A DNA stretch of 64,000 nucleotides, from the NCBI RefSeq assembly GCF_016722925.1, contig NZ_JAEQNC010000003.1:434001-498000 (forward strand). Direction: 5' to 3'. The position numbers were made by a program, and so were the translations under genes. Shown piece after piece: positions 47,579-64,000 of the stretch. This stretch comes from Phytoamicus setariae. Its GTDB lineage: Bacteria; Pseudomonadota; Alphaproteobacteria; Rhizobiales; Rhizobiaceae. Position 1 is the stretch's first letter, and every line of letters begins with the position of its first letter. Below the pieces are notes generated by a model. That model made no database searches. It was not told the origin of the DNA and saw nothing but the letters and a program-made list of their open reading frames with translations.

Positions 47579-47911
47579 TTATTTCAGCGCGATATATGTC
47601 TGCGGATCGAGGGCGGTCGCGCGGACGGCGACATACTGGCCGGAAGCCTCGGTGACCATCTCGCGCAGTTTTCGGCACACGTCCCTCACGGTTTCTTGTG
47701 TCCGGTCGGGTTTGGGCAGGATCATCAACTCGACGTTCACGTGAGGCTGATCATCCAAACCCGCAACCTGCAGGATCGCGAACTGGCACGCGCTCGTATC
47801 AACCTTCAGTTCGACGCACAGCATCTCCCGTATAGGTAGCAGAGCTGATTTCAGCGACGTTACGGAAGCTTCGGGCAACGTCTCGTCCACATAGATTTTA
47901 ATGTTAGGCAT
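47579..47911 (-). CDS. Tautomerase-superfamily protein
   Basis: A 110-residue protein starting M-P-N-I-K-I-Y-V-D-E-T-L-P, so the processed form would have the N-terminal proline used as catalytic base in the tautomerase (4-OT/MIF) superfamily. The size is that of MIF-like or 5-carboxymethyl-2-hydroxymuconate isomerase-like members rather than the 60-residue 4-OT. It is 3 bp downstream of hydroxyquinol dioxygenase and the last gene of module A. It may isomerise a ring-cleavage product, though this step is not needed in the standard hydroxyquinol pathway. Confidence 0.75.
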   Translation of the reverse strand: MPNIKIYVDETLPEASVTSLKSALLPIREMLCVELKVDTSACQFAILQVAGLDDQPHVNVELMILPKPDRTQETVRDVCRKLREMVTEASGQYVAVRATALDPQTYIALK

Positions 47912-47914
47912 GGG

Positions 47915-48760
47915 TTACCTCGACACGGGGCAGAGCACGAAATCGAACGGCGAGCGCCAGAGCGTCTCCGCTTCATTCAGGCGCTCGTAAGGGGCAACGA
48001 GTGTAGTCTTGACGCCAAACACGGTGTCGGACTGCAGATAGGGATCATCACCAACGAAGGTGTGCGTGACGAGCTTCTGATATCCATCCGCCGTAACCAT
48101 GTAATGCATATGCGCAGGACGATAGGGATGGCGCCCCAGATTCCCCAGCATCTGGCCGACCGGTCCGTCATCGGGGATGGGGTAGGATACCGGCTTGATC
48201 CCGACAAAACTGTAGCAGCCGTCCGGGCCTGTAACGAAGATGCCGCGATTGTTCCACTTCGGCTGGATATCGGGTTGCTGGACATCGTAGAAGCCATCGG
48301 CATTGTCCGACCAGACGTCGACGCGAGCGCCTTCGATCGGCCGCCCTTCGAGATCGAGAACCTTTCCCTCGAAGAGACAGCTTTCCCCCTTGCCGTCGAG
48401 CGATATGCAGTCGCCCATCGCCAATACCGGCGCACCGACGACATGGAACGGTCCGAAGACGGTGTTTTCAGTCGAGCCCGCAGGCCTGCGGTTGTTGATG
48501 GCGTCAACGAGCATGGAGAAGCCGAGCGTATCGGACAGCAGGATGAATTCCTGACGTTCACCGCTACAGATCCGGCCGGTTTTCGTCAGGAAATCGATGC
48601 CAACTTCCCACTCCTTCTGGGTCAGTTGAATTTCCTTCGCAAAAGCATGCAGGTGCTTGACGAGACATGACATGACTTCTGCCAGGCGAGGGTCCGTGCC
48701 CTCCCCCATTCTGGCGTTTACCGCCTCGACCGAACCTTCCTCGTTAAAATATCTGGTCAT
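47915..48760 (-). CDS. Hydroxyquinol 1,2-dioxygenase (module A)
   Basis: A 281-residue intradiol dioxygenase that cleaves 1,2,4-trihydroxybenzene to maleylacetate. The N-terminal helical dimerisation part (VKHLHAFAKEIQLTQKEWEVGIDFLTKTGRICSGERQEFILLSDTLGFSMLVDAINNRR) and the catalytic part follow the hydroxyquinol subgroup. Fe(III) ligands are the tyrosines in DNADGFYDVQQPD and PVSYPIPDDGP and the histidines in RPAHMHYM. Roughly 70 percent of residues appear identical to the module B copy at 59108. AGGAG lies 9 bp before the ATG. Confidence 0.93.
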   Translation of the reverse strand: MTRYFNEEGSVEAVNARMGEGTDPRLAEVMSCLVKHLHAFAKEIQLTQKEWEVGIDFLTKTGRICSGERQEFILLSDTLGFSMLVDAINNRRPAGSTENTVFGPFHVVGAPVLAMGDCISLDGKGESCLFEGKVLDLEGRPIEGARVDVWSDNADGFYDVQQPDIQPKWNNRGIFVTGPDGCYSFVGIKPVSYPIPDDGPVGQMLGNLGRHPYRPAHMHYMVTADGYQKLVTHTFVGDDPYLQSDTVFGVKTTLVAPYERLNEAETLWRSPFDFVLCPVSR

Positions 48761-48800
48761 CTGAACTTACTCCTGAATAGATGAAGGGATGCCGCCTCAT

Positions 48801-49877
48801 TCAAGCTGCCGGTTGCCCGACGGGCAGCGGCGGCGCCTCACCCGCGGCATTCCTGGCAGGTGCCAGGTGGCGAAGAGGCAGCAGATCGAGGCCGGTGCGA
48901 TCGACGAACGTGCCCCAAAGACCGCGTCGCGCGAACAACATGATCCCAATGCCAAGCAGGCCGAGAATGATGAGGTAGACCGTTCCATAATCGGCCATGA
49001 CCCGCTGCAGGCAGTAGAACACCGCAACGCCGACAATTGGCCCCGGCAACGTGCCGATTCCGCCGATGACCACGACGAAGATGACGAACGCCGTCCAGTC
49101 GATGACCGAGAATGCGGCATCCGGCGTGACGCGCGTGATCTGCAGGAACATCAGCGCTCCGCACAAACCCGTCCCCAAGGCCGAAAGGATGAAGATAGCA
49201 GCCTTGATGCGAACCGGATCGACGCCCACGGAACGGGCGGCATTGGCATTGTCGCGAGTGGCCTGAAGCCCCAGCCCCAACCGGGAGCGCAAAAACAGGT
49301 AAGATGCCACGAACAGAACAAGAGCAAGCACCAAGGCAAACCAATAGGTCAGGGCATCGGTGGCGGCGGCGGTGCTGACGTCAAGCAGATGCTTGATCGC
49401 GTCCACCCCGAACATGTCCTTGGTCGTGCCCTTCGGCAGCGACGTTCCAGTTCCTCCGCCGAGAGCCTTCCACTGGCCTGCGGCAAGCCGGGCGATGTCA
49501 GCGACAACCCAGGTACCGATGGCAAAATAGGCGCCGTTCAATCGGAAGGTGAAAAACGCCATCGGAACAGCAAACAACGCTGCGACGAGACCGCCGATCA
49601 GAATGCCGATCAGTGGATCAAATCCCCAGAGGATCACCGCAGCAAACATCGCGTAGGCGCCGATGCCGACGAATGCCTGCTGCCCGACGGAAACGAGCCC
49701 CGCGAATCCGGCAAGCATGTTCCAGTTCATGGCAAGAACCAGCAAGGTCAAAACACCGAAGAGATCCTGAACGACGGCGCGCGGTGCAAAGAATGGCAGG
49801 GCGAACAGCGTTGCGACGATCACCGCCGACAGGATGACAACCGAAGCACGGCCAGTTGTAAAAGATGAAATGTTCAT
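48801..49877 (-). CDS. Branched-chain-type ABC transporter permease LivM
   Basis: A 358-residue permease with LivM signatures: LLVLAMNWNMLAGFAGLVSVGQQAFVGIGAYAMFAAVILWG at the N-terminus and LGLGLQATRDNANAARSVGVDPVRIKAAIFILSALGTGLCGALMF in the middle. The extended C-terminal tail (LDLLPLRHLAPARNAAGEAPPLP) is unusual but not disruptive. The start at 49877 is the first credible one; the frame upstream overlaps livH. The Liv-type importer in a phenolic catabolic operon probably takes up an aromatic acid or phenol. Confidence 0.9.
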   Translation of the reverse strand: MNISSFTTGRASVVILSAVIVATLFALPFFAPRAVVQDLFGVLTLLVLAMNWNMLAGFAGLVSVGQQAFVGIGAYAMFAAVILWGFDPLIGILIGGLVAALFAVPMAFFTFRLNGAYFAIGTWVVADIARLAAGQWKALGGGTGTSLPKGTTKDMFGVDAIKHLLDVSTAAATDALTYWFALVLALVLFVASYLFLRSRLGLGLQATRDNANAARSVGVDPVRIKAAIFILSALGTGLCGALMFLQITRVTPDAAFSVIDWTAFVIFVVVIGGIGTLPGPIVGVAVFYCLQRVMADYGTVYLIILGLLGIGIMLFARRGLWGTFVDRTGLDLLPLRHLAPARNAAGEAPPLPVGQPAA

Positions 49878-49888
49878 AGCTTCAGACC

Positions 49889-50752
49889 TCAATCGTTGGC
49901 GCGCGGAAAGAGGCCGCGGGGACTGACGAGAAGAACAAGGACGAAGGCGATATGTCCCGCCAGAATCTGCCATTCCGGATTGACCGCAGCACCCACCGTC
50001 TGGGCGAGCCCGATGACGATGCCGCCAGCAAGCGTGCCCCATAGGCTGCCGAGACCGCCGATGATGACGGCTTCGAAGGCGTAGAGCAGACGCGCCGGAC
50101 CGATCGACGGATCGAAGTTCGCGCGCATGCCAAGATAAACGGCGGCAATGCTCGCAACGACGAACGCGAGCCCGGTTGCAATCGCAAAGATTCGGTTTGG
50201 CCGGATGCCCATCAACCGGGCAGTGACGGCATCATCCGATGTCGCTCGAAACGCACGGCCAAGAGCCGTGGTATAGAAGAGCCTATTCAGAGCAAAAATG
50301 ACGAGAACGGCGGTCGCAAGAGTCAGAAGCGGCATGACACCGACCGTCAGAGACCCTATCTGCAATGATTGTGTCTCGATAGCGCCGGCAGAAAGCTTCT
50401 GGCTGTTTGCGGAGAAACCCTCCAGCAACGCATTCTGGATGACGACGGACAGGCCGAACGTCACCAGTAGCGGCGGCAGCAAGTCATCACCGAGCACCCT
50501 GTTCAGCACATGGGTCTGCAGCAGCCAGCCGACGGCGAACATCCCGGGAGCAGCCAACAGGACGGCCCAAAAAGGATGCAATCCCAGAGCGCTGGCAATG
50601 ACGAGGATAAGATAGGCCGCCAACACGATCAGATCACCATGGGCCAGATTGACCAGACGCATGATCCCAAAGACAAGGCTGAGGCCGGCGGCGAAAAGGG
50701 CGTAGAGCCCACCAAGCAGGATGCCCTGCATGATCGTGTCCAGGGTTATCAT
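49889..50752 (-). CDS. Branched-chain-type ABC transporter permease LivH
   Basis: A 287-residue permease: GILLGGLYALFAAGLSLVFGIMRLVNLAHGDLIVLAAYL is the LivH hallmark, with the loop LGRAFRATSDDAVTARLMGIRPNRIFAIATGLAFVVASIAAVYLG. It overlaps livF by 4 bp (50749-50752) and is 11 bp from livM. Confidence 0.92.
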   Translation of the reverse strand: MITLDTIMQGILLGGLYALFAAGLSLVFGIMRLVNLAHGDLIVLAAYLILVIASALGLHPFWAVLLAAPGMFAVGWLLQTHVLNRVLGDDLLPPLLVTFGLSVVIQNALLEGFSANSQKLSAGAIETQSLQIGSLTVGVMPLLTLATAVLVIFALNRLFYTTALGRAFRATSDDAVTARLMGIRPNRIFAIATGLAFVVASIAAVYLGMRANFDPSIGPARLLYAFEAVIIGGLGSLWGTLAGGIVIGLAQTVGAAVNPEWQILAGHIAFVLVLLVSPRGLFPRAND

Positions 50753-51462
50753 GCATGCACTCCGAAATAGGCATCGTGGATGGCATCCCGAGAGAGTTCG
50801 TCGGGACGGCCCTCAAGCGTGATCCGGCCTTCCGCCATGCAATAGACGCGATCTGCGACCTTCAGGGCCTGGCCGATATCCTGCTCGACGACGACGATCG
50901 AGGTTCCCACCGCCTTGATCCGGGGGACGGCGGCGTAAATGTCCTTGATGACGACAGGTGCGAGGCCAAGCGAGATCTCGTCGCAAAGCAGGACGCGCGG
51001 GTTGCTCATCAGTGCGCGACCAATGGCCACCATCTGCTGCTGCCCACCCGAAAGCGCGGTGCCGGGGCTGCGCCGGCGTTCGGCGAGGATCGGGAAAAGC
51101 TCGTAGAGGCTTTTCAGGTTCCAGGGCCCCTCGCCCTTGCGGGCATGGGCGCCGATCAGCAGGTTTTCCTCCACGGTCAATGAAGGGAACAGACGGCGCC
51201 CTTCCGGTACGGTGGCGATTCCCTTGAGGAGAATGTCCGGCGCATCCAGATGATCGATGCGCTCTCCCTCGAGCGTCATATTACCGGACCCGATTTTGAC
51301 AATCCCGGTCAGTGCACGCATCAACGTGCTCTTTCCAGCGCCGTTTGCCCCGATCATGGCAACCGTTTCACCGGCATCGAGATACATGTCGATGCCGAAC
51401 AACGCCTGGAAGTCACCGTAATAGGCTGTCAGGCCGTTGATTTCGAGAAAATGCCCGCTCAT
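50749..51462 (-). CDS. Branched-chain-type ABC transporter ATP-binding protein LivF
   Basis: A 237-residue ATPase. Walker A is IGANGAGKSTLMRALTG, signature ALSGGQQQMVAIGRALMSNPRVLLCDEISLGLAP, with the LivF-type end PDELSRDAIHDAYFGVHA. The start at 51462 overlaps the livG stop as ATGA. The frame upstream is unrelated. Confidence 0.92.
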   Translation of the reverse strand: MSGHFLEINGLTAYYGDFQALFGIDMYLDAGETVAMIGANGAGKSTLMRALTGIVKIGSGNMTLEGERIDHLDAPDILLKGIATVPEGRRLFPSLTVEENLLIGAHARKGEGPWNLKSLYELFPILAERRRSPGTALSGGQQQMVAIGRALMSNPRVLLCDEISLGLAPVVIKDIYAAVPRIKAVGTSIVVVEQDIGQALKVADRVYCMAEGRITLEGRPDELSRDAIHDAYFGVHA

Positions 51463-52178
51463 GCCTCGATCCCCAGATAGATTTCGCGAACCTCGCGCGA
51501 CGCCATGACCTCTTCCGGCGGGCCGGCCATGAGGACACGGCCGAAATTCAGCACCACCAGTCGTTCTACGACGCTGTTCAGTGCATGCAGAACGTGCTCG
51601 ATCCATATGATCGCCGTGCCTCCGGCGTGGATCTCCCTTATGGTCGCAACCAGCTCCCGACACTCCGCCTCCGTCAGTCCACCGGCGATCTCATCCAGCA
51701 GAAGGATCCTTGGCTTGGTTGCCATCGCTCGCGCCAGTTCAAGCCGTTTGCGCTGAAGCAGCGGCAGCCCGCCGGCTTCCCTGTTGGCCTGCGGTGCCAA
51801 ACGGGTGCGCTCGAGAATGTCCATGCAGAAACCGGGCGCGTCAGCGGCGGAAACGGTTCCGCCGAAGCGGGCGGCAACAAGGAGGTTTTCATAGACGGAA
51901 AGTCGACCGAACGGCTGCGGGATCTGAAACGACCGGCCGATGCCGCTCTCGCAGCGCTTCATCGCGCTGTCACGGGTAACATCCCGTCCGTCGAGAAAAA
52001 TCTGGCCGCTGTCAGCCGCGACATTTCCCGTGATGAGGTTGAAGAGGGTCGACTTCCCTGCGCCGTTCGGACCGATGATGCCGAGCGCTTCGCCATTGTT
52101 CAGGTCGAAACTGACATCGTCTGTCACCTTCAATGCACCGAACGATTTCGATACCGCTTTGAGAGATAGGATGGGCAT
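51459..52178 (-). CDS. Branched-chain-type ABC transporter ATP-binding protein LivG
   Basis: A 239-residue ATPase: LKAVSKSFGALKVTDDVSFDLNNGEALGIIGPNGAGKSTLFNLITGNVAADSGQIFLDGRDVT, signature-region AGGLPLLQRKRLELARAMATKPRILLLDEIAGGLTEAECRELV. The LivG hallmark, in which the LSGGQ motif reads L-P-L-L-Q-R-K-R, is present. It follows livK by 70 bp with a hairpin in between. Confidence 0.92.
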   Translation of the reverse strand: MPILSLKAVSKSFGALKVTDDVSFDLNNGEALGIIGPNGAGKSTLFNLITGNVAADSGQIFLDGRDVTRDSAMKRCESGIGRSFQIPQPFGRLSVYENLLVAARFGGTVSAADAPGFCMDILERTRLAPQANREAGGLPLLQRKRLELARAMATKPRILLLDEIAGGLTEAECRELVATIREIHAGGTAIIWIEHVLHALNSVVERLVVLNFGRVLMAGPPEEVMASREVREIYLGIEA

Positions 52179-52248: not shown

Positions 52249-53514
52249 TTAGCCAAGCAGTTCCAGCTTGCCGCCGAGCGGAATCTCCGGCGCATTGGCG
52301 TTTTCAACGATGACCAGATCGAAGGTTCCATCGCTCTTTCGGCGCCACTGCCCGCCGACCAGCGGCGTCTTCGCCACGTTCTTGCGTGCAAAGGGAGGCA
52401 CGTTGTCCTTGCCCCATTTGATGTTGCCCACCACGGTATCGAGGTTGGTGGCGGAAATGGCTTCAACGATGGCCTCACCATCTGTGGGGTCGGATGCGCG
52501 CTTCAAGACATCGGCTGCGAGCTCGAACAGCGCGTGGGTGAAGCCAACCGGCTGGGTCCATTGCCGTTTTGCCGCTTTTGAAAAGCCGTCAGCCAGTTCC
52601 GCCGAGCTTTCGCCGGTCAGGGACGACTTGTAGGGGAAAGCCGGCGACCAGTAGATTTCCGCTGTCAGGTTATGACCAAGATCGCCCAAGGCGACCACGC
52701 TTTCCGGGAACAGAAGCGCCTTTGCGATCGACACGATCTTGGGCTTGAAACCCTGCTGGGCGGCCTGTGTCCAGAAGGTCGTGAAGTCCGGCGGGATCGG
52801 AATACCGGTGAAGATATCGCAGCCGGCCTGCTTGAATGCGTTGATCTGGGCGCTGAAGTCGTCCGTCAGGTTCTGGTAACGGCCGGGATCGGTCAGTTGA
52901 TAACCGGCCGCCTTTGCCGCCGGAGGCATTCCGACGTCCGAGCCCCAGGCATTGCCATCCCCGTCATTCGGCCACAGTGCGCCGACCTTCTTGTTGGTGT
53001 CGAGGCTATTCCACATATTGAGGAAGACCGAGACGTTGTCTTCCAGCCCCCAGAAGAAGTGATAGACATAATCGAACTCCTGCCAGCTTCCGGGATCAGC
53101 GGGGTTTCCCTGCTGCCCGATGAACCAGGGCTGCCATGGAGCGACGGAGGAAATGACTGGCACTTCCTCGCTTTCGGCAATGGCACAGACCGGGTTCGTG
53201 GTCTCCGGCGTGGAGGCGACGAGGATCAGGTTCACTTCGTCGCGGCTGATGAGTTCCTTCGCGACTTCCGCTGCCCGGTTCGGATTGGACTGGCTGTCCT
53301 TCACGATCACCTCAACATCCAGACCGAGAGACTTGGCGCTTTCGAGGAATTTCGAGACCATGTAGCTATCCGCCTGGGCGAAGGCCGAAAGCGGGCCGGA
53401 CTGAGGCGTCACATAGCCGATCTTGATCTTGGCACCGCTGGCAAGAGCGGGCATGGCGAAGCTCGTGGCATAGGCGGCGGCAGTCGTCTTCAACAGTTGT
53501 CTTCTGGTAATCAT
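52249..53514 (-). CDS. Branched-chain-type ABC transporter substrate-binding protein LivK-like
   Basis: A 421-residue periplasmic protein with a signal resembling the Tat class (ITRRQLLKTTAAAYATSFAMPALA, cleavage near residue 26). The mature part starts KIKIGYVTPQSGPLSAFAQADSYMVSKFLESAKSLGLDVEVIVKDSQSNPNRAAEVAKELISRDEVNLILVASTPETTNPVC. Relatives of this subtype (Peripla_BP_6) bind aromatic acids as well as amino acids. The start at 53514 is chosen for the signal. It lies 26 bp after maleylacetate reductase. Confidence 0.9.
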   Translation of the reverse strand: MITRRQLLKTTAAAYATSFAMPALASGAKIKIGYVTPQSGPLSAFAQADSYMVSKFLESAKSLGLDVEVIVKDSQSNPNRAAEVAKELISRDEVNLILVASTPETTNPVCAIAESEEVPVISSVAPWQPWFIGQQGNPADPGSWQEFDYVYHFFWGLEDNVSVFLNMWNSLDTNKKVGALWPNDGDGNAWGSDVGMPPAAKAAGYQLTDPGRYQNLTDDFSAQINAFKQAGCDIFTGIPIPPDFTTFWTQAAQQGFKPKIVSIAKALLFPESVVALGDLGHNLTAEIYWSPAFPYKSSLTGESSAELADGFSKAAKRQWTQPVGFTHALFELAADVLKRASDPTDGEAIVEAISATNLDTVVGNIKWGKDNVPPFARKNVAKTPLVGGQWRRKSDGTFDLVIVENANAPEIPLGGKLELLG

Positions 53515-53540: not shown

Positions 53541-54602
53541 TTACTCTGGTCTTGAACCGCTCCATGCGCGTTGCAGAAGATCGCGGATCGCCTGCTTCTC
53601 GATGGGGCGTGGATTCCAGTATGGATTGGTAGTGGCAAGCTCCGCGGCGCGATCGAGATCGGCCGAAGCGAGGCCAAGGACCTTCAGGCTTGTTGGAGCA
53701 CCGAGCGCAGCAGAGAAGGCGTATAATCCTGCGGCTGCGGTGGGCGCCCCAAAAATCTCGGCAACCGGCGACAGCAGTTCGGGAACCGCTTTCTCCGCAT
53801 AGGCCACCGTATGCGGCAGCATGACTGCGTGCGTTTCTGCGTGCGGCAAGTCGTACGTGCCGCCGAGCGTGTGACAGATCTTGTGATGCAGCGCCATTCC
53901 GACCATGCCGAGCACGCTGCCACAGAGCCAGGAGCCGTAGAGCGCATTCGAGCGCGCCACGGCATCGCCCGGATTGGTGACGATGCCCGGCAAAGCCACC
54001 TTCAGGGCGCGCACGCCTTCGACAGCCATCATCGATGCGATCGGATTGCGGTCCTGCGCACAAAGACCCTCGACCGCATGCGCGATCGCATTCAGGCCCG
54101 AGGTGACGCTTATCGCAACAGGAAGACCGCGTGTGAGATCCGGATCGTAGATGACTGTTTCGGGAAGGATCGAGGAGCCGCGTACGGTCGTTTTCACGCC
54201 TCTCTCGGTCTGGCCAAGGATGGGCGTGACTTCCGACCCGGCATAGGTGGTCGCAATGACGATCTGCGGCGCATCGTTTCGATAGGCTATGGCCTTGCCG
54301 AGCCCGATCGTCGAGCCGCCACCGAAAGCGACCACGCAGTCCGCACCCGTGTCTGAGTAGACGGCCATTGCCCTTTCCGTCACCTCGACCGGCGTGTGCA
54401 TCGTGGCCTCCGCGAAAACGCCGGCGGCAAGATTGCCAAGCGTCTGGGCGATCGCTTCAACATCAGGCTTCTGAAATGGGGTCGAGAGCAGCAAGGCGCG
54501 GCGGCGGCCCAATCGACGAATTTCTTCGCCAAGCTCCGCCGCCCTGCCTGACCCAAAAAGAATGCGTGCCGGATTTCCCGTATAGATAAATGACTGGTCC
54601 AC
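53541..54602 (-). CDS. Maleylacetate reductase (module A)
   Basis: A 353-residue iron-type alcohol dehydrogenase-fold enzyme that reduces maleylacetate to 3-oxoadipate with NAD(P)H. The N-terminus FIYTGNPARILFGSGRAAELGEEIRRLGRRRALLLSTP and the nucleotide-binding GGGSTIGLGKAIAYRNDAPQIVIATTYAGSEVTPILGQTERGVKTT match the family; HHKICHTLGGTYDLPHAETHAVMLPH is the usual metal-binding region. The module B copy at 57941 is a close homologue. Lies between the hydroxylase and the importer genes. Confidence 0.92.
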   Translation of the reverse strand: MDQSFIYTGNPARILFGSGRAAELGEEIRRLGRRRALLLSTPFQKPDVEAIAQTLGNLAAGVFAEATMHTPVEVTERAMAVYSDTGADCVVAFGGGSTIGLGKAIAYRNDAPQIVIATTYAGSEVTPILGQTERGVKTTVRGSSILPETVIYDPDLTRGLPVAISVTSGLNAIAHAVEGLCAQDRNPIASMMAVEGVRALKVALPGIVTNPGDAVARSNALYGSWLCGSVLGMVGMALHHKICHTLGGTYDLPHAETHAVMLPHTVAYAEKAVPELLSPVAEIFGAPTAAAGLYAFSAALGAPTSLKVLGLASADLDRAAELATTNPYWNPRPIEKQAIRDLLQRAWSGSRPE

Positions 54603-56296: not shown

Positions 56297-56757
56297 TCTT
56301 TCCTCCGTCTTCAAACACACGCCATCCAGACGCACAGCAGCGCCATCGCCGGACTGATAAATTCGGTACGATTTCAGCTTCTATTGGGTCTTTTCCGTCG
56401 TCAGAGCGGACCTTTCAGGCCCAGCCCATCGCTACGCCTTGGGAACGCTTTTCCGTATTGTGCTCAATGAGCCGAGCGCACGCTGGGAATACCTCACCGA
56501 AAATTCCTCCAGATCCTCCGTTGGAATTGACGTTAGATCAAAAATGAATGACATTCAATATAGAATATTATTCGGTATCGAAATCTGTGATTGAGGTGCT
56601 TCCTTAAAAAATCTCGTCGCCGGCCGTTGAACGAGCTACCATCATGAGACATTGACGATTTGGCCGCTTCACTCCCATTTTCGCGGCTGAGAAATGGTCG
56701 ACACCCGGTATTCGAACGCGATTCGGATATGAGGCTTGAAGTAAGGACGAGAGAGTT
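56297..56757. other. 461-bp divergent control region of module A
   Basis: This spacer lies between the FAD hydroxylase and the TetR gene. It holds the two palindromes listed separately. A possible relic of coding sequence near 56340-56500 could not be assigned. Confidence 0.55.
56546..56573. promoter_or_regulatory. Paired palindromic TetR operator
   Basis: GAATGACATTC (56546-56556) and GAATATTATTC (56563-56573) are both perfect 11-bp palindromes of form GAATN-N-NATTC, centred 17 bp apart. They lie 250 bp upstream of the hydroxylase and about 185 bp upstream of the TetR gene. Such tandem sites commonly bind two TetR-type dimers. Confidence 0.6.
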
Positions 56758-57426
56758 ATGGATACGAAGCGGGCAGAGGGCAGAGTAGCCCGACGGCAAA
56801 AGCGCAACCGCACGGCTTTGCTGGAAGCCGGCGAGGAAGTCATGTCGGAAAAGGGGATTGATGCCGCAACGATGCAGGAGATTGCAGAACGGGCGGACGT
56901 TGGCGCCGGTACAGTCTACAACTACTTCAAGTCCAAGGACGATCTGGCAGTCGCTGTTCTGGAGAACATCATGGAACGTTTGGCGGAGCGCATCGAGGAC
57001 GTGACGGACACGTTTTCGGACCCTGCCCAGGTTTATGCATTCGGTATTCGGCAGGTGCTCGAAACGGCCACGGGGGATGTACGATGGAAGCAACTGCTCC
57101 ATCGCTCCGAAGTCATCGCTGACGCGCTTTATCGGCGAATGGGGCCCTACCCCATGCGGGATATGCGCCTGGCCACTGAGGCTGGACGCTTCAATGTCAC
57201 GGATCCAGCCCTCATCTGGCGTTTGACCTCGCATGCGATCGTTGGCTTTGCTCTCGGCATCACCAAGGATGGCCTGCCACCCAGCTCGATCAACGAGGCA
57301 GTTATCCGGCTTTTGTGCATGACCGGTCTCGCGATTGATGACGCGGCCGAACTCGCCGCGAGGCCATGCCCACCACTGCCTCCGCAACCGGCTCCGCGCA
57401 AAAACCGCATCAGCGATTACATGTGA
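56758..57426 (+). CDS. TetR family transcriptional regulator (module A)
   Basis: A 222-residue regulator with a TetR helix-turn-helix at about residues 16-62 (RTALLEAGEEVMSEKGIDAATMQEIAERADVGAGTVYNYFKSKDDLAVAVLENIMERLAERI), including the classic GTVYNYFKSKDDL. The ligand domain is of the general AcrR-like type. It is divergent from the module A operon and probably controls it in response to a phenolic ligand or pathway intermediate. Confidence 0.9.
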   Translation: MDTKRAEGRVARRQKRNRTALLEAGEEVMSEKGIDAATMQEIAERADVGAGTVYNYFKSKDDLAVAVLENIMERLAERIEDVTDTFSDPAQVYAFGIRQVLETATGDVRWKQLLHRSEVIADALYRRMGPYPMRDMRLATEAGRFNVTDPALIWRLTSHAIVGFALGITKDGLPPSSINEAVIRLLCMTGLAIDDAAELAARPCPPLPPQPAPRKNRISDYM

Positions 57427-57940: not shown

Positions 57941-59014
57941 TCAGGCGACCGGCGGATCGCCTGACCAGGCGGCCTGCAGCAGTCGCCGGATCGCGTCCCG
58001 CTCGACCAAGCGTGGGTTCCAATAGGGGTTTTTCGCGGCTAGATCGGCAGCATGGTCGAGGTCACCTGCCTTCAACCCCAGATCTTCAAGTGACATCGGC
58101 GCGTTCACCGTACCGGCGAAACGGTGAAGCGCCATTCCCGGCTCGTCGTCGCCGAAGAGCTCGGCAAGGGGTCGCAGTTCATCACGCGCCGCTCTAGCGT
58201 TGTAGGCAATGGCATGCGGTAGAATAACGGCGTGGGTTTCGGCATGCGGCAGGTCAAAACTGCCCCCCAGTGTGTGGCAAAGCTTGTGATGCAGTGCCAT
58301 GCCGACCTGCCCCAGCACCGTGCCGCACAGCCATGCGCCATAAAGAGTTTCGGCGCGCGCGCTCAGGTCGTCGGGATTGGCCAGCACGCGCGGCAGGGCA
58401 TCGCGGAAGGCCCGCATTCCCTCAACTGCCATAAGCGAGGTGAGTGGCGTGCGGTTCTGAGCGTAAAGCCCTTCGGCAGCATGCGCTATGGCATTGAGCG
58501 CGCTCGCCACCGTCATTGCTATCGGCAGGGTACGCACCAGTTCGGCATCATAGAGGATGACCTCCGGCTGCACTCTGGCGTCGGTCAAAGTGGTCTTCAC
58601 GCCATCTTCGGTCTGGCCGAGAATGGCAGTCGCCTCGCTGCCCGCATAGGTTGTCGGTACGACGATCTGCGGCAGATCGGTGCGTAATGCAATCGCTTTG
58701 CCGAGCCCGGTGGTTGAACCGCCACCGACGGCCACGAGGCAGTCGGCCCCGATCTCACGCGCATAGGACGCCGCTTCCTCGGAAATCGCCACCGGCGTAT
58801 GCATCCGCGCACGGCTGAAGGTCCCGGCAACGTGATCGCCACACAGCACCGCGAATTCCTCTGCCACGGAAACTTGCTCCGGCGTCGTCAGGATAAGGGC
58901 GCGCCGGCAATCCAGCCGCTTGATCTCCGCAACAAGGTCGTGACGCACACCGGCGCCGAAACGCACGCGAATTGCCGGCCATTGCACGGCAAACTCTTCA
59001 CGGAAAAATGACAT
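57941..59014 (-). CDS. Maleylacetate reductase (module B)
   Basis: A 357-residue paralogue of the module A enzyme, with GVRHDLVAEIKRLDCRRALILTTP at the N-terminus, GGGSTTGLGKAIALRTDLPQIVVPTTYAGSEATAILGQTEDGVKTT for nucleotide binding, and HHKLCHTLGGSFDLPHAETHAVILPH at the metal-type region. It reduces maleylacetate to 3-oxoadipate. It is the last gene of module B, 93 bp after hydroxyquinol dioxygenase. Confidence 0.92.
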   Translation of the reverse strand: MSFFREEFAVQWPAIRVRFGAGVRHDLVAEIKRLDCRRALILTTPEQVSVAEEFAVLCGDHVAGTFSRARMHTPVAISEEAASYAREIGADCLVAVGGGSTTGLGKAIALRTDLPQIVVPTTYAGSEATAILGQTEDGVKTTLTDARVQPEVILYDAELVRTLPIAMTVASALNAIAHAAEGLYAQNRTPLTSLMAVEGMRAFRDALPRVLANPDDLSARAETLYGAWLCGTVLGQVGMALHHKLCHTLGGSFDLPHAETHAVILPHAIAYNARAARDELRPLAELFGDDEPGMALHRFAGTVNAPMSLEDLGLKAGDLDHAADLAAKNPYWNPRLVERDAIRRLLQAAWSGDPPVA

Positions 59015-59107: not shown

Positions 59108-59956
59108 TCATTCAGGTGTCATCATGAAGTCGAAGGGAGAGCGCCAGAGCGTCGGCGCCCCTTCTAGCCGCTCATAGGGGGCGATCAGCGACTCCTTCAC
59201 CCCGAAGACCGCGTCGGAAGACAAGTATCCATCGCCACCGACGAAAGTATGCGTCACCAGTTTGCGAAAACCCGGCGCGCTGATCATATAGTGCATGTGG
59301 GCTGGCCGCCACGGATGACGTCCGAGATAACCAAGAAGCCGTCCGACAGGGCCGTCGTCGGGGATCGGATAGCTCACCGGGCGGATGCCGACAAAACTGT
59401 AGCGGCCGTCGGCTCGAGTGATGAAACGACCGCGATTGTTCCATTTAGGCTGGATATCTGGCTGCTGAACATCGTAGAAACCGTCGGCATTGTCTGACCA
59501 GACATCGACACAGGCCCCCTCGACCGGCTGGCCTGAAAGGTCCAGAACGCAACCTTCGAACAGGCAGCTTTCACCCTTGCCATCCAGGCTGATGACCGAG
59601 CCATGTTCGCGCACCGGTGCATTCTCTACATGGAAAGGACCAAGGACCGTGCTTTCGGTCGCCCCCTTCGGGCGTCGGTTGGTTATGGCGTCCACCAGCA
59701 TCGAACAACCCAGCACATCCGAGAGCAGGATGAATTCCTGCCGTTCCTGCGTGCAGATTTGCCCCGTTCTGGTCAGAAAATCGATCGCCACGCCCCATTC
59801 GTCGGCAGTCAGCTTCACTTCCTTGACGAAGGCATGCAGATGCTTGACAATGCCCGCCATGATTTCAGCCAGTCGCGGGTCCGTATTGTCGTCCATACGG
59901 GCATTCACGATGGCGGCCGAATCCTCTTCCGCGAAGTATTTCACGATATCCTCCAT
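59108..59956 (-). CDS. Hydroxyquinol 1,2-dioxygenase (module B)
   Basis: A 282-residue intradiol dioxygenase, paralogous to the enzyme at 47915. Conserved ligands are in DNADGFYDVQQPD, PVSYPIPDDGP and RPAHMHYM. Conserved N-terminal helices (VKHLHAFVKEVKLTADEWGVAIDFLTRTGQICTQERQEFILLSDVLGCSM) are complete. The ATG at 59956 is one choice, but a GTG at 59944 follows GGAGG at 5 bp and aligns exactly with the paralogue's first residue, so it is a serious alternative. Confidence 0.93.
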   Translation of the reverse strand: MEDIVKYFAEEDSAAIVNARMDDNTDPRLAEIMAGIVKHLHAFVKEVKLTADEWGVAIDFLTRTGQICTQERQEFILLSDVLGCSMLVDAITNRRPKGATESTVLGPFHVENAPVREHGSVISLDGKGESCLFEGCVLDLSGQPVEGACVDVWSDNADGFYDVQQPDIQPKWNNRGRFITRADGRYSFVGIRPVSYPIPDDGPVGRLLGYLGRHPWRPAHMHYMISAPGFRKLVTHTFVGGDGYLSSDAVFGVKESLIAPYERLEGAPTLWRSPFDFMMTPE

Positions 59957-60067
59957 TGTCCTTTTGTATTGCCAGCGTCTTCACGCGGCATTGCTTTTGC
60001 TCCACCAGAAGCTGGGCACTACCTTGCGCGAGTGGGGCTCTTGGCCACGCGCAACGTGGCCAGGAAG

Positions 60068-60559
60068 TTAAGCGAGGGCGACCGAGCGCGCATACTTCCC
60101 ATCCTCATAGAGCAGAGGGGAAATATTCTCGCTGATCAACACACGATGAACGCCACCAATGAAGACCCTGTGAGTCCCAAACTCGATTGACTTTTCCAGC
60201 GAGCAGAACAGGTTAGCCTGCGCGTCGAAGAGAAAAGGAAGACCTTCCTCGGACTGCCGCCAGTCACCAGCCGAAAAGCGCTGTTCGCCCTTCAGCTTGC
60301 CTGCGAACGCTGTAGAAATCTCATGTTGATCCACTTGCAGCATGTTCACGCAGAACCTTTCGCTTGCCAGAAGAGGAACATGCAGGGATGACGCTGTGTT
60401 GATGCAAACCAACAGAGCAGCAGGCTCAGCGCAGACCGACGTAACGGCGGTCGCCGTCATGCCATATCTGGTGCCGTTGTGTTCGCTTGTGATGACACTG
60501 ACTGTTGTCGTTAGTCGGCGCATCGCGCCGCGGAAGTCGTCGGTAATCTCCGTGATCAT
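60068..60559 (-). CDS. Flavin reductase (small component of two-component monooxygenase)
   Basis: A 163-residue flavin reductase of the FMN-binding split-barrel family (DIM6/NTAB): ITDDFRGAMRRLTTTVSVITSEHNGTRYGMTATAVTSVCAEPAALLVCINTASSLHVPLLASERFCVNML, ending with EFGTHRVFIGGVHRVL. It supplies reduced flavin to the large component at 60964. This is the arrangement reported for resorcinol hydroxylase of Rhizobium (GraA/GraD). The start overlaps the EthD-like gene by 4 bp (60556-60559). Confidence 0.92.
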   Translation of the reverse strand: MITEITDDFRGAMRRLTTTVSVITSEHNGTRYGMTATAVTSVCAEPAALLVCINTASSLHVPLLASERFCVNMLQVDQHEISTAFAGKLKGEQRFSAGDWRQSEEGLPFLFDAQANLFCSLEKSIEFGTHRVFIGGVHRVLISENISPLLYEDGKYARSVALA

Positions 60560-60891
60560 CGCGCATCTCCGGAAAACCTCTCGCATCGGAGTTGCGCAGC
60601 GACTTCGTAGGTCAAAATAGTGACTCCGGCCGCCGCGTAGTTTGGGACATCAGCAGCCGCCGCGGCACCCTCCGGCGAATCCAAAGCCGCCTGCATCGCG
60701 TCCCGGGTATCGAATTCACATTCGACCAGGGCGTAATAAGGCGAATTGTCGCCACCTGCGATATCGAAAGCATGCCTCATGGCCCTTAGATTTTGGAATT
60801 TTGAAACCAGTGGAAGATGCACCTGCTCAAGGTGCTGGCGGAACTGGATGATGTCCGCAGGGTGGTTGTACAGGGCAATCAACTTGTGCAT
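60556..60891 (-). CDS. EthD-like small protein
   Basis: A 111-residue dimeric alpha-beta barrel-type protein: HKLIALYNHPADIIQFRQHLEQVHLPLVSKFQNLRAMRHAFDIAGGDNSPYYALVECEFDTRDAMQAALDSPEGAAAAADVPNYAAAGVTILTYEV. This matches the EthD pattern, found as an accessory in oxygenase operons, with no clear catalytic role. It is translationally coupled to the flavin reductase gene. Confidence 0.85.
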   Translation of the reverse strand: MHKLIALYNHPADIIQFRQHLEQVHLPLVSKFQNLRAMRHAFDIAGGDNSPYYALVECEFDTRDAMQAALDSPEGAAAAADVPNYAAAGVTILTYEVAAQLRCERFSGDAR

Positions 60892-60920
60892 TCAGGTTCT
60901 CCTCATATCCTCAGCTTGAA

Positions 60921-60959
60921 CTGCGGCTGCTGGCAGGTTTCGCATGCCAGCAGCCGCAG
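60921..60959 (-). promoter_or_regulatory. Strong hairpin between monooxygenase and EthD-like genes
   Basis: CTGCGGCTGCTGGCA (60921-60935) and TGCCAGCAGCCGCAG (60945-60959) form a perfect 15-bp stem with a 9-nt loop. It begins 4 bp after the monooxygenase stop codon. No T-run follows on the coding strand. It probably stabilises the monooxygenase mRNA or partly ends transcription. Confidence 0.75.
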
Positions 60960-60963
60960 TGTG

Positions 60964-62208
60964 TCAAAACGGTTGAACGATTTCTTCGACACCGAAGAGA
61001 ACGCGGCCGTAGATCAGGTTCGCCATTTCCGGGAGAACGAAAGCGTGTCTGCTGGCCACTTCGCTATCGCGCCAAATGCGCTGCAAACTGTTGGACAACG
61101 CAAAGCTCGATGCACCGTTGACACTCAAAAGTTTATTGATGGCTTCACGTGCTAGCTTACCCGCTTGGCCTGTATCCATGCGGATGCGCGCTCGGGTCAG
61201 GGGATCAAGCTTCTCCTTGCGCAGAGCAGCGCTATCAATATCCGCGCACGCACGGGCCACGAGCAAATAGGCCTGATCAGCCAATGAGACTGCTTCCGCG
61301 AGTTCGATTTGGTGAACCGGCGAATGGCGAGCTTGAGTGAATGTTGTGTACGCAACTGATTTTGTTGGAGCCTTGGAAAGGGTCAGATCAATCGCACCAC
61401 GAGCGAGGCCAAGTTGGGCTGCAACGAGAACGATCTCAGCCACGGGAACGAACGATGCGTAGTCGTTCGGCTCATCGGAGTCGGATCTCGCGTATGCTTC
61501 GTTCGCCATATCACCGAAATTCTGAATGCGGTGACTGGGGATGAAAACGTTGTCGGCGACCAGCGTGTTGCTGCCGGACGCGCGCATACCTGCGACGAAC
61601 CAGGTGTCGCGGTAGGTAAGATCACTGAACGGCACCAGGGCAAGCCCGAGGATTGTAGAGCCGTCCGGATTCGTGCCGAGGCTGACGCCCAGGGTTGCCC
61701 ACTGAGCATGCCGCGAGCCGGAAGCATACCACCATTCGCCGGTCACCCGAATGCCCCCTTCGACAATCTCGGTTTTCGCCGGCGCGGTGAAAATACCGCA
61801 GATGCGAGCGCCCGGGGTGGTGCCAAAGGACTCTTCCTGAGCCTGATCCGAGTAGAGTGAGGCAAACCAGGTGCAGACGTTCAGAAGAGCCATCGCCCAT
61901 GCCGTCCCGCCATCCGCCTTCGCGACCTCAGCTACCGCGTCGATGAAGGTCCGGAAATTCGCGCCGCTCCCTCCAAGCCGTTTCGGTACAGAAATGTGAA
62001 ACAGGCCGCGCTCATGTAGTGCGTTTACGACCTCTTCGGAAACACAGCGATTGTCCTCACCTTCCTGCGCGTGTTTGCGGACAATCTCCAACACTTCACG
62101 TGCTCTGGAAACGATTTCCAGATCTGGTCCTGGCGCATCAAAGAATGCATCGAGGGGACGTGAAATCGGGTTTGGTGTTTCACTGGTGGAACCCAGTTTG
62201 TTCAGCAT
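60964..62208 (-). CDS. Acyl-CoA dehydrogenase-fold flavin monooxygenase (resorcinol hydroxylase-like large component)
   Basis: A 414-residue reduced-flavin-dependent monooxygenase with the acyl-CoA dehydrogenase fold (group D): LHERGLFHISVPKRLGGSGANFRTFIDAVAEVAKADGGTAWAMALLNVCTWFASLYSDQAQEESFG, then ITGEWWYASGSRHAQW-like beta domain (IRVTGEWWYASGSRHAQWATLG) and C-terminal helices with SLQRIWRDSEVASRHAFVLPE. It resembles large components such as HpaB-like C2, TftD and GraA. It should hydroxylate a resorcinol-like phenol with reduced flavin from the product at 60068. AAGGAGG precedes the ATG, and a sigma54 promoter lies upstream. Confidence 0.88.
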   Translation of the reverse strand: MLNKLGSTSETPNPISRPLDAFFDAPGPDLEIVSRAREVLEIVRKHAQEGEDNRCVSEEVVNALHERGLFHISVPKRLGGSGANFRTFIDAVAEVAKADGGTAWAMALLNVCTWFASLYSDQAQEESFGTTPGARICGIFTAPAKTEIVEGGIRVTGEWWYASGSRHAQWATLGVSLGTNPDGSTILGLALVPFSDLTYRDTWFVAGMRASGSNTLVADNVFIPSHRIQNFGDMANEAYARSDSDEPNDYASFVPVAEIVLVAAQLGLARGAIDLTLSKAPTKSVAYTTFTQARHSPVHQIELAEAVSLADQAYLLVARACADIDSAALRKEKLDPLTRARIRMDTGQAGKLAREAINKLLSVNGASSFALSNSLQRIWRDSEVASRHAFVLPEMANLIYGRVLFGVEEIVQPF

Positions 62209-62260: not shown

Positions 62261-62276
62261 TGCATAAGTCGTGCCA
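62261..62276 (-). promoter_or_regulatory. Sigma54 (-24/-12) promoter for module B
   Basis: The minus strand reads TGGCACGACTTATGCA, close to the consensus TGGCAC-N5-TTGCA, with the GG-N10-GC spacing exact. The only mismatch is A for T in the -12 block. It is 53 bp upstream of the monooxygenase ATG. The divergent gene encodes a sigma54-dependent activator, so this is very probably its target. Confidence 0.85.
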
Positions 62277-62295
62277 ACCGGTCCGTCGCTTGCCG

Positions 62296-62330
62296 ATCAA
62301 TCGTTATTCCATTGATAAATAATCGTTATT
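62296..62330. promoter_or_regulatory. Tandem activator sites (UAS) for the XylR/DmpR-like regulator
   Basis: AATCGTTATT occurs at 62299-62308 and again at 62321-62330, exactly 22 bp apart (two helical turns). The first copy lies within the inverted repeat ATCAAT (62296-62301) and ATTGAT (62311-62316). This fits paired upstream activating sites of XylR-type proteins, though they lie closer to the -24 element than usual. Confidence 0.6.
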
Positions 62331-62444
62331 TCTTGAATAGCGTCGATGTCGCCGAGATTGCCATCCCCGCCAATTATGGCTACTGTTCGCCACATCACCG
62401 CAAATTTGGCTTCTGGTGACCAATCGCACATTGGGAGGTGTTCG

Positions 62445-64000
62445 ATGTCCAAACTGTCAGGATTGGTGCTGAGCGTAGGACCGGATGCCTCCGGCAGCAT
62501 CAATACGGGCGAGTCGATATTGCCCGACCTATCGGATTTGAGTGAACGCATTAAATTCGTGCCAAGAGAGGGGCAAATTTGGCTGGACGACCAACGGGCG
62601 GTCATTCTGAACCTGGAAGTTCTAATCACGCTACGCAGGGAGCTGATGGAAGGTCTAGGTCCGCAAAAAGCCAATGAAGTGCTTTTTCGTGCTGGACATG
62701 CGGCGGGGGCACGTGAAGGCATGCTGGCCATCAAGGTCAGGGCCAACAAACCGCATCTCGATGCCTTCCTTGTCGGTCCTCAACTCCACGCGCTGAGAGG
62801 GGAGGTATATGTCGAGCCAGTAATTTTAGAAGGGGACGTCGAGACGGGGAGATACTACAGTGAATTGCTATGGCGGAACTCTGCTGAAGCAGAAACGCAT
62901 GTGGCTTCCTTCGGTGGCAGTAACGAGCCTGTTTGCTGGATGCAGATCGGCTATGCCTCGGGTTACACGAGCACCGTCATGGGGCGACCGATAATATTTA
63001 GGGAAGTCGAATGCGTGGCATGTGGCTCGTCGCACTGTCGCATCGTTGGAAAACCCGCTGAGGAATGGCCGACGGAGCCGGAGCATGCCTTTCTGTCAAA
63101 GGTCGGATCTTACTCGTCGAGCAAAGATGAGAAACGCAGCATTATCGGACGATCCTCCCGGTTTTTGGGTGCGTGGCATCTTCTTACAAAGGTTGCACCG
63201 TTGCGTACAACGACACTGCTTCTGGGTGAAACCGGTGTCGGCAAGGAAATATTCGCAAAAGCAATCCATGACGCCAGTCCACGACGTAAAATGAGCATGC
63301 TGAGCGTAAATTGCGCGGCAATTCCTGAAAGCTTGATCGATGCGGAACTGTTTGGCGTTGAGAAGGGCGCTTTTACAGGTGCCGGACATGCTCGGGCAGG
63401 CTGGTTTGAGGCTGCGGACAAAAACACCCTGTTCCTCGACGAGATCGGAACCCTGAACCTGAACGCTCAGGCAAAGCTCCTAAGAGTCCTTCAAGAGGGT
63501 CAGTTTAGCAGGCTTGGCGGGACGATCATGCGCAACGTCGACGCGAGGATCATCTGCGCAACGAACGTCGACCTCGAGCGGGAAGTCAAAGAGGGCCGCT
63601 TCCGTGCGGACCTTTTGCATCGCCTCAACGCTTTTCCGATCGCCATACCGCCGCTAAGGGAGAGGCGCGATGATATCCCCCTGCTTATCGACTACTTCCT
63701 CTCACGGTTCAACGAAAGGAACGGCCGGCATATTAGCGGCTTCACGATGAAAGCGGTGGACGCTTTGATGGCCTATGAGTTTCCGGGAAATGTTCGTGAG
63801 CTGGAAAACATGATCGAGCGCGCCGCAATCCTTACCCCAGAAGACGAACCCATAGACACTCTACACCTATTCAACAATCAAAGCGGGCTTCACCGCACCT
63901 ATCTTACGCCCGAAGTGGGGGGCAGCCTCGTGCGGAGGGCATTCCCGTATCTTGACGAAATGCCACATGAGGCCATCTCCACCACAGCGGGTATGTCACT
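62445..64000 (+). CDS. XylR/DmpR-type sigma54-dependent activator of aromatic catabolism, truncated at window end
   Basis: At least 518 residues, open to the window end. The N-terminal XylR_N ligand domain is followed by a V4R segment (GYASGYTSTVMGRPIIFREVECVACGSSHCRIVGKPAEEW), the effector-binding part in XylR and DmpR. The AAA+ domain has Walker A GETGVGKE (from residue 261), the sigma54-contact GAFTGA at 308-313, Walker B NTLFLDEIG, and the EFPGNVRELENMIERA end. The C-terminal helix-turn-helix must lie beyond 64000. GGGAGG precedes ATG 62445. Divergent from module B, it should activate that operon when a phenolic effector binds. Confidence 0.92.
   Translation, partial: MSKLSGLVLSVGPDASGSINTGESILPDLSDLSERIKFVPREGQIWLDDQRAVILNLEVLITLRRELMEGLGPQKANEVLFRAGHAAGAREGMLAIKVRANKPHLDAFLVGPQLHALRGEVYVEPVILEGDVETGRYYSELLWRNSAEAETHVASFGGSNEPVCWMQIGYASGYTSTVMGRPIIFREVECVACGSSHCRIVGKPAEEWPTEPEHAFLSKVGSYSSSKDEKRSIIGRSSRFLGAWHLLTKVAPLRTTTLLLGETGVGKEIFAKAIHDASPRRKMSMLSVNCAAIPESLIDAELFGVEKGAFTGAGHARAGWFEAADKNTLFLDEIGTLNLNAQAKLLRVLQEGQFSRLGGTIMRNVDARIICATNVDLEREVKEGRFRADLLHRLNAFPIAIPPLRERRDDIPLLIDYFLSRFNERNGRHISGFTMKAVDALMAYEFPGNVRELENMIERAAILTPEDEPIDTLHLFNNQSGLHRTYLTPEVGGSLVRRAFPYLDEMPHEAISTTAGMS

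What the first reader, a model, noticed from the sequence alone, without database searches (positions are those of the whole stretch)
47579..64000. Two complete hydroxyquinol pathways side by side, with different hydroxylases and different regulators
Seen: module A has a one-component FAD hydroxylase plus hydroxyquinol dioxygenase, maleylacetate reductase and a Liv-type importer next to a TetR gene. Module B has a two-component reduced-flavin monooxygenase, a second dioxygenase and a second reductase next to a sigma54 XylR-type activator. Known: both hydroxylase types occur for resorcinol-like substrates, as in Rhizobium Gra and Corynebacterium resorcinol clusters. Inference: A and B serve different phenols or different concentrations, converging on 3-oxoadipate. 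The 3-oxoadipate end is not in the window.
Basis: partly seen in the sequence, partly recalled or inferred. Interest (0 to 1): 0.75.

Follow-up and report, generated by a model that had tools for sequence, protein, structure and literature searches.

The report
Two independently assembled hydroxyquinol degradation modules
A bacterium carries, side by side, two differently regulated gene sets that each appear to turn phenol-like compounds into hydroxyquinol and then break the ring; the two sets look put together from different ancestors rather than copied from one another.

Summary
Module A (47579-56335, TetR 56758-57426) and module B (57941-62208, activator 62346-64127, cut by the window end) each encode a hydroxylase, a hydroxyquinol dioxygenase (HQDO) and a maleylacetate reductase (MAR). 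A's TetR has RolR, the Corynebacterium resorcinol repressor, as best solved relative by about 16 orders of magnitude. B's activator keeps the zinc site and His/Trp phenol anchor of MopR/DmpR; a sigma54 site precedes the oxygenase in 3 of 3 loci. B is not Gra: its oxygenase is 28% identical to a gra-type one, and no gamma-resorcylate decarboxylase was detected. The modules are not tandem copies: MAR-A and MAR-B are 56% identical and sisterhood is rejected; the HQDO-B/MAR-B pair is closest to Agrobacterium vitis. Module B alone lies on a Caballeronia contig; an A. fabrum plasmid has both hydroxylases but one HQDO. A probable 3-oxoadipate drain lies about 62 kb upstream. Substrates are inferred. 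New variant of a known kind.

The parts
47579..47911 (-). 110-aa conserved protein of unknown function, 3 bp 3' of HQDO-A; invariant Met1-Pro2
   Evidence: DUF1904 match E 0.016, below cut-off
47915..48760 (-). HQDO-A, hydroxyquinol 1,2-dioxygenase
   Evidence: Pfam; 73% to HQDO-B, 89% to A. tumefaciens HAMBI 105
48801..49877 (-). LivM-type permease of module A importer (start inferred)
49889..50752 (-). LivH-type permease
50749..51462 (-). LivF-type ATPase (start inferred)
51459..52178 (-). LivG-type ATPase
52249..53514 (-). Periplasmic substrate-binding protein (start inferred), 85% to that of A. fabrum Kin001
53541..54602 (-). MAR-A, maleylacetate reductase, LHHKICHTLGG motif
   Evidence: 69.5% to gra-like MAR
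54668..56335 (-). Single-component FAD hydroxylase A (MhpA-like)
   Evidence: (568 bits, cut-off 390, PRK06183.1-3)
56545..56557 (.). TGAATGACATTCA palindrome, weak candidate TetR operator
   Evidence: this form is not in 4 relatives
56758..57426 (+). RolR-like TetR regulator
   Evidence: Best PDB hit 3aqs/3aqt RolR E 2.4e-25, next 1.7e-09
57941..59014 (-). MAR-B, maleylacetate reductase, LHHKLCHTLGG motif
   Evidence: 85% to A. vitis, 56% to MAR-A
59108..59956 (-). HQDO-B, hydroxyquinol 1,2-dioxygenase
   Evidence: 86% to A. vitis
60068..60586 (-). Flavin reductase partner (start as listed; may be internal)
   Evidence: PF01613, 3.3e-39
60556..60891 (-).
   Evidence: kept in Kin001 and Caballeronia
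60964..62208 (-). Oxygenase B, reduced-flavin monooxygenase of the HsaA/XiaF type
   Evidence: 83% Kin001, 72% Caballeronia
62261..62276 (-). Sigma54 -24/-12-like site, TGGCACG-N5-TGCA, 53 bp before oxygenase B
   Evidence: mean 0.07 expected in the window by chance
62346..64000 (+). DmpR/MopR-class activator (XylR_N, V4R, AAA+, HTH); continues to window-equivalent 64127

Best explanation
Two separately controlled peripheral modules converge on hydroxyquinol. Module A: a RolR-like TetR repressor, released by a resorcinol-like compound, controls an operon with its own Liv-type importer, an FAD hydroxylase that makes hydroxyquinol, HQDO-A and MAR-A. Module B: a phenol-type ligand binds the V4R sensor of a DmpR/MopR-class activator, which drives sigma54 RNA polymerase at the -24/-12 site in front of oxygenase B, EthD protein, flavin reductase, HQDO-B and MAR-B. 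Both yield 3-oxoadipate, drained by a CoA-transferase pair and PcaF of the pca cluster on the same contig. The modules were assembled independently from rearranging parts. Shown: gene content, full-length genes, signature motifs of HQDO, MAR and hydroxylase A, regulator classes, promoter-like site, relatives, tree rejection of sisterhood. Inferred: substrates, inducers, the direction of TetR control, operon structure, that the importer carries A's substrate, the CoA-transferase's substrate, and flux.
For: Families and motifs; RolR as best PDB hit at 2.4e-25 with Arg148 and Asp149 kept (residues read by hand from that alignment with PMC3086911 passages); MopR His106, Trp134, Cys155, Glu178, Cys181, Cys189 kept in 3 of 3 module-B regulators; sigma54 site in 3 of 3 loci; module B complete on a Caballeronia contig; A-type operon with TetR, importer, MAR and HQDO in Kin001 and Phaeobacter; AU tests p 3.5e-08 for MAR and 3.3e-05 for HQDO against an A+B pair; PcaF equivalog and two CoA_trans subunits 62-65 kb upstream of the window.
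Against: No expression, growth or enzyme data. RolR Arg145 is Tyr and Asp94 is Glu here, so the inducer may not be resorcinol itself. Hydroxylase A could not be compared with RolH (sequence not held). On the Kin001 plasmid there is one HQDO for both hydroxylases, which would also fit two hydroxylations in series. The CoA-transferase pair is outside the curated PcaI/PcaJ cut-offs, and the only clear classical pcaI match in the genome is a truncated fragment, so the drain is inferred from Pfam and context. The trees rest on 14-15 rows that I chose.
Confidence: 0.65

Rival explanations
1. Redundant modules: both hydroxylases act on the same compound (for example resorcinol), and the second set was simply acquired and tolerated.
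For: Both end in the same two enzymes; more than one HQDO per replicon is not rare (408 places in 303 plasmid records at E <= 1e-60).
Against: Sensor classes and ligand pockets are unrelated and only A has an importer.
Confidence: 0.2
2. Series, not parallel: oxygenase B makes a dihydroxybenzene that induces A, whose FAD hydroxylase then forms hydroxyquinol.
For: On the A. fabrum Kin001 plasmid oxygenase B has no HQDO/MAR of its own and lies beside module A; an HQDO search of that whole plasmid finds one copy (the rest of that genome was not searched).
Against: In Caballeronia and here oxygenase B is followed by HQDO and MAR, and so is a 47% relative in R. jostii RHA1. In the Kin001 record the activator's reading frame ends before its helix-turn-helix, so B may be degenerate there.
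Confidence: 0.1
3. Decaying island: the locus is a graveyard of transferred parts with little present function.
For: A truncated pcaI fragment abuts the activator gene and transposase-like genes (judged by eye) follow module C.
Against: The enzymes and both regulators are full length, with signature motifs intact where checked; a drain is present.
Confidence: 0.05

Closest known systems
rol cluster of Corynebacterium glutamicum (RolR, NCgl1110-1111 region)
   Same: RolR-type TetR regulator divergent to FAD hydroxylase, MAR and HQDO (cluster composition recalled; regulator tested)
   Different: Module A has a five-gene Liv-type importer and a 110-aa gene; two of four RolR hydrogen-bonding ligand residues differ; hydroxylase orthology untested
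gra-like gamma-resorcylate/resorcinol cluster (R. johnstonii 3841 pRL12; Rhizobium sp. MTP-10005 recalled)
   Same: Reduced-flavin oxygenase of the acyl-CoA dehydrogenase superfamily, flavin reductase, MAR, HQDO and a small accessory protein
   Different: Module B oxygenase only 28% identical, sigma54 activator instead of MarR, EthD instead of YciI, no decarboxylase
DmpR/MopR/PoxR phenol-sensing sigma54 activators
   Same: Domain order, zinc ligands, His/Trp anchor, -24/-12 site
   Different: Next to a two-component flavin hydroxylase and hydroxyquinol pathway, not a multicomponent phenol hydroxylase (recalled for the models); Phe132 is Leu, Ser166 is Thr and Tyr176 is Phe (MopR numbering)
A. 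fabrum Kin001 pAt2 island
   Same: Hydroxylase A (72%), oxygenase B (83%), EthD, reductase, TetR and activator side by side
   Different: One HQDO/MAR set only; flanked by an aminomethyltransferase/MTHFR/PurU/Liv cluster; activator frame ends early

Membership tests
rol-type resorcinol module (module A) | RolR-like TetR regulator divergent to the operon | tested here: met
   3aqs/3aqt E 2.4e-25, next best 1.7e-09; divergent at 56758-57426
rol-type resorcinol module (module A) | RolR ligand network Asp94, Arg145, Arg148, Asp149 | tested here: inconclusive
   Arg148 and Asp149 kept, Asp94 is Glu, Arg145 is Tyr (read by hand; residues from PMC3086911 passages)
rol-type resorcinol module (module A) | Single-component FAD hydroxylase with MAR and HQDO in one gene run | tested here: met
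rol-type resorcinol module (module A) | Hydroxylase orthologous to RolH | not tested
gra-type cluster (module B) | Oxygenase and reductase of the Gra clade | tested here: not met
   28% and 41% to the R. johnstonii 3841 gra-like proteins; the Gra identity of that cluster is inferred from its gene order and tsdA annotation
gra-type cluster (module B) | gamma-resorcylate decarboxylase in the cluster | tested here: not met
   None among the module's genes; none found in the genome at E <= 0.001 (no positive control)
DmpR/MopR-class phenol regulators | XylR_N, V4R, AAA+ and HTH; zinc ligands; His/Trp hydroxyl anchor | tested here: met
   residue roles as in PMC7264223 and PMC10715001 passages
DmpR/MopR-class phenol regulators | Activation by a phenol in vivo | not testable with these tools
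   Needs reporter assays
Hydroxyquinol 1,2-dioxygenase (both) | Closest solved relatives are hydroxyquinol-type dioxygenases, ahead of catechol dioxygenases | tested here: met
   HQDO-B: 8r2x 2.1e-130, 3n9t (PnpC), 1tmx, 8r2v, 8r2w 1.7e-69, then chlorocatechol 1s9a 1.7e-39. HQDO-A was not searched itself; it is 73% to B
Maleylacetate reductase (both) | LHHKxCHTLGG signature and equivalents of PcpE His172 and Lys238 | tested here: met
   signature and essential residues from PMC5741723 passages; the His172 equivalent is assigned by eye to LNAIAHA
Tautomerase/MIF superfamily (110-aa protein) | N-terminal Pro after Met | tested here: met
   Invariant in 10 of 10 aligned
Tautomerase/MIF superfamily (110-aa protein) | Profile or fold similarity | tested here: inconclusive
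   CHMI profile comparison probability 1.1%; DUF1904 E 0.016 below cut-off; low-confidence single-sequence model, pLDDT 65, whose best matches are other folds at marginal scores

The most novel reading that the evidence does not exclude
Module B carries a mobile hydroxylase cassette (DmpR-type sensor, sigma54 promoter, oxygenase, EthD, reductase), for which my paper searches showed no description, that is plugged onto different hydroxyquinol lower pathways and turns a simple phenol directly into hydroxyquinol; and the conserved 110-aa protein beside HQDO-A is a dedicated 3-hydroxymuconate/maleylacetate tautomerase for a step thought to be spontaneous.
Probability: 0.15. Interest if true: 0.6.

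Novelty: new variant of a known kind. Interest (0 to 1): 0.42.

Why it matters
It gives three natural configurations of the same parts (B on its own on a Caballeronia contig, A and B beside one HQDO/MAR set on the Kin001 plasmid, A and B each complete here), so the value of a separate lower pathway for each inducer can be tested directly. It also flags a rarely found two-component hydroxylase clade distinct from the gra-like one and paired with a phenol-sensor regulator, and an uncharacterised small protein that sits directly 3' of HQDO in 16 of the 18 plasmid records whose coordinates I compared.

Tried and rejected
Tandem duplication of A and B: rejected by identities and AU tests; I ran the test after seeing the tree, though duplication is the obvious prior hypothesis. 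Gra membership of B: rejected. Gamma-resorcylate route: no decarboxylase found (an empty answer without a control). Relic of a 110-aa gene, LysR gene or second FAD monooxygenase between HQDO-B and TetR, as in A. vitis: no such hit by tblastn. TetR operator: one TGAAT-N3-ATTCA palindrome, resembling one in the RolR-bound fragment; that form is absent from four relatives, two of which have only looser TGAA...TTCA sites, and the looser form occurs 8 times in the window; left as a weak lead. Tautomerase fold for the 110-aa protein: PDB profile search (best E 0.71), Pfam scan of 10 members (DUF1904 in 2), DUF1904 genome search, CHMI profile comparison and fold searches gave no support (control comparison with EthD); rang nowhere, also not in its controls. 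No tautomerase appeared among the 50 rows shown of each fold list, which excludes nothing. Rfam: no match at gathering thresholds in the window. Literature: paper searches; one search was ruined by word-start matches, one search found nothing. The original rol and gra gene papers did not turn up in these searches, so those cluster compositions are recalled except where stated. Whether a hydroxyquinol-pathway tautomerase is in print was searched only (12 of 58 papers listed, listing read, none on it by title or abstract start).
Full report
WHAT IS THERE. The window is positions 434001-498000 of contig C23 in a 5.6 Mb, 37-contig genome. Module A on the minus strand runs, in transcription order, FAD hydroxylase (54668-56335), MAR-A (53541-54602), substrate-binding protein, LivG, LivF, LivH, LivM, HQDO-A (47915-48760) and a 110-aa gene (47579-47911), with a divergent TetR gene at 56758-57426. 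Module B runs oxygenase (60964-62208), EthD (60556-60891), flavin reductase (60068-60586), HQDO-B (59108-59956) and MAR-B (57941-59014), with a divergent sigma54 activator from 62346, complete at 593 aa in the continuation L009.

ENZYMES. HQDO-B's five nearest solved relatives are hydroxyquinol-type dioxygenases (8r2x 2.1e-130; 3n9t, named PnpC; 1tmx; 8r2v, named only intradiol dioxygenase; 8r2w 1.7e-69), about 30 orders of magnitude ahead of the first chlorocatechol enzyme (1s9a, 1.7e-39). MAR-B matches maleylacetate reductases 3w5s and 3hl0. Both MARs carry the LHHKxCHTLGG signature described for the family (PMC5741723, passages read). Both HQDOs share the SYPIPDDGP and RPAHMHY stretches in which I recall iron ligands to lie. 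Hydroxylase A belongs to the MhpA-like family and has no close solved relative (best E 5.3e-22). Oxygenase B is nearest to XiaF (3.8e-57) and HsaA (5.9e-55) among solved structures; its catalytic residues were not checked. The genome holds three full-length HQDO-like genes: A, B and a more distant one on C32, which by eye lies beside a muconate-cycloisomerase-like gene and a Liv-type importer.

REGULATORS. The TetR protein's best PDB match is RolR, the resorcinol regulator of Corynebacterium glutamicum, at 2.4e-25; the next is 1.7e-09. Mapped by hand on that alignment, RolR Arg148 and Asp149 are kept, Asp94 is Glu and Arg145 is Tyr. In the paper (passages read) D149A loses resorcinol binding and D94A, R145A and R148A fall to 5.1, 8.6 and 2.8%. 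Arg148 and Asp149 are also kept in the TetR proteins beside hydroxylase A in Kin001, Phaeobacter and P. versutus; a fifth aligned TetR, an unrelated neighbour in Kin001, lacks them. So a resorcinol-like inducer is likely, resorcinol itself uncertain. The module B activator matches the PoxR, MopR and DmpR/CapR sensor domains (E 3.8e-52 to 1.3e-48). By MopR numbering, His106 and Trp134 (hydroxyl anchor) and Cys155, Glu178, Cys181 and Cys189 (zinc) are present in 3 of 3 module-B regulators; the roles of the anchor and zinc residues are from passages of PMC7264223 and PMC10715001, the MopR zinc numbering by alignment. Of the other MopR pocket residues listed there, Phe132 is Leu (3 of 3 regulators), Ser166 is Thr and Tyr176 is Phe in the window protein: a slightly altered phenol pocket. 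A -24/-12-like element TGGCACG-N5-TGCA lies 53 bp before the oxygenase start (mean 0.07 expected, 7 of 100 shuffles had one). I read the pattern off this site and its two relatives before scanning. Of the 41 loci then held, 6 match: four copies of this region, Kin001 and Caballeronia, 53-64 bp before the oxygenase in all three.

RELATIVES AND ORIGIN. A scan of 84,980 named genomes with oxygenase B as a single query, a mode that finds close relatives only, found one, Caballeronia sordidicola PAMC 26633 (73%). Its 9.9 kb contig holds the activator divergent to oxygenase, EthD, reductase, HQDO, a small gene that looks Dabb-like and MAR, with transposase-like genes at its ends (the last three assignments by eye for the small gene and the transposases). 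Whether that genome also has a module A was not examined. Among plasmids the best match is A. fabrum Kin001 pAt2 (83%; the next is 47%, R. jostii RHA1). In 297 genomes of the same family none but the own passes 1e-80, and hydroxylase A at 1e-180 is found in 1 of 397 genomes of the order, the own; both searches scored only the top few candidates of each genome. The Kin001 plasmid carries both hydroxylases and both regulators but one HQDO (whole plasmid) and one MAR in the 34 kb stretch shown. MAR-A and MAR-B are 56% identical; MAR-B is 85% and HQDO-B 86% identical to the A. vitis pair, whereas HQDO-A is 89% to HAMBI 105 and MAR-A 69% to Kin001. In the MAR tree MAR-B falls with A. vitis, P. versutus and Martelella (100/99), and holding A and B together is rejected (p 3.5e-08 for MAR, 3.3e-05 for HQDO). 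The trees have 14 and 15 rows that I chose, and the HQDO tree is poorly resolved (1 starred branch of 12). The modules most likely came together from different sources; module B itself looks chimeric, its hydroxylase half being shared with Kin001 and Caballeronia and its lower half with A. vitis-type clusters.

NOT GRA. R. johnstonii 3841 pRL12 has a gra-like order: MarR, reductase, oxygenase, gamma-resorcylate decarboxylase, MAR, HQDO, YciI. Module B's oxygenase is 28% and its reductase 41% identical to those; HQDO-A and MAR-A are 78% and 69.5%, HQDO-B and MAR-B 71% and 59% identical to that cluster's. So the lower enzymes are close kin of gra-like ones while the hydroxylase is not. That decarboxylase finds no relative in the genome (no positive control).

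THE DRAIN. No PcaI or PcaJ over the curated cut-off is found in the genome; in 151 family genomes, own included, 79 have a PcaI over cut-off. A PcaF equivalog (690 bits, cut-off 597) and two CoA_trans proteins lie in the pca cluster at about C23:368.9-371.8 kb, 62-65 kb before the window start; one of the two gives a weak PcaJ match (24.9 bits), and NCBIfam names neither. I read these as the 3-oxoadipate drain, by Pfam and context only. A truncated pcaI fragment (profile 2-123 of 222) abuts the activator's 3' end just beyond the window and is 45% identical to the P. versutus subunit over its first 126 residues.

THE 110-AA GENE. It occurs in 44 plasmid records but in only 2 of 397 genomes of the order at 1e-12, the own included. 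I could compare positions in 18 of the 44 records: it is directly 3' of an HQDO gene in 16, one gene away in 1 (HAMBI 105), and undecidable in 1 (NZ_CP090093, where only another HQDO copy is listed); several of the 18 are near duplicates. HQDO genes also occur without it (Phaeobacter, R. jostii, Caballeronia, R. johnstonii, and HQDO-B here). Pro2 and 11 other positions are invariant in 10 of 10. A tautomerase acting on the 3-hydroxymuconate product of HQDO is a natural guess, but no profile or fold test supported it.

VERDICT. A real, intact-looking pair of hydroxyquinol modules with unrelated sensors. A is a rol-like module with its own importer; B is a phenol-sensor module with a hydroxylase clade distinct from the gra-like one. 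Parallel use on different phenols is the best explanation (0.65); substrates and inducers need experiments.

Noticed in passing
L009:3598-12974 (window-equivalent 64598-73974): A third aromatic module beyond the window: VOC extradiol dioxygenase, FAA hydrolase, second MhpA-like FAD hydroxylase (35% to hydroxylase A), GntR regulator, substrate-binding protein and Liv-type importer genes (by eye). Gene set like hcdABC of P. mandelii 7HK4 (PMC6222606, passages read) or an orcinol-type route (recalled).
   Followed up: partly
window 36409-44256: Sulfatase with a Cys-type CGPSR motif, HAD hydrolase and formylglycine-generating-enzyme-like protein, with an ABC transporter and MarR-like gene between (by eye). 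P. versutus pTAV3 also has an arylsulfatase and FGE inside its hydroxyquinol island, so aryl sulfates may feed such pathways.
   Followed up: partly
L042, L044, L046: In three rhizobial plasmids MAR-HQDO-110aa sits near an aminomethyltransferase/MTHFR/PurU/Liv cluster; in L044 and L046 no hydroxylase gene lies in the stretch shown, suggesting a folate-dependent O-demethylation route to hydroxyquinol.
   Followed up: no
L009:3083-3508: Truncated pcaI (3-oxoacid CoA-transferase subunit A) fragment convergent with the activator gene.
   Followed up: partly
L010:16404-17978: The Kin001 module-B activator reading frame ends before a helix-turn-helix, which lies in another frame downstream; possibly a broken gene or a sequencing error.
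   Followed up: partly
L040:7306-9404: Third HQDO-like intradiol dioxygenase next to what looks like a muconate-cycloisomerase gene, with its own Liv-type importer, on contig C32.
   Followed up: no
CP070278.1 and NZ_CP066788.1: Plasmid records labelled Dysgonomonadaceae zrk40 and Martelella lutilitoris give identical matches, so the first label is probably a mix-up.
   Followed up: no
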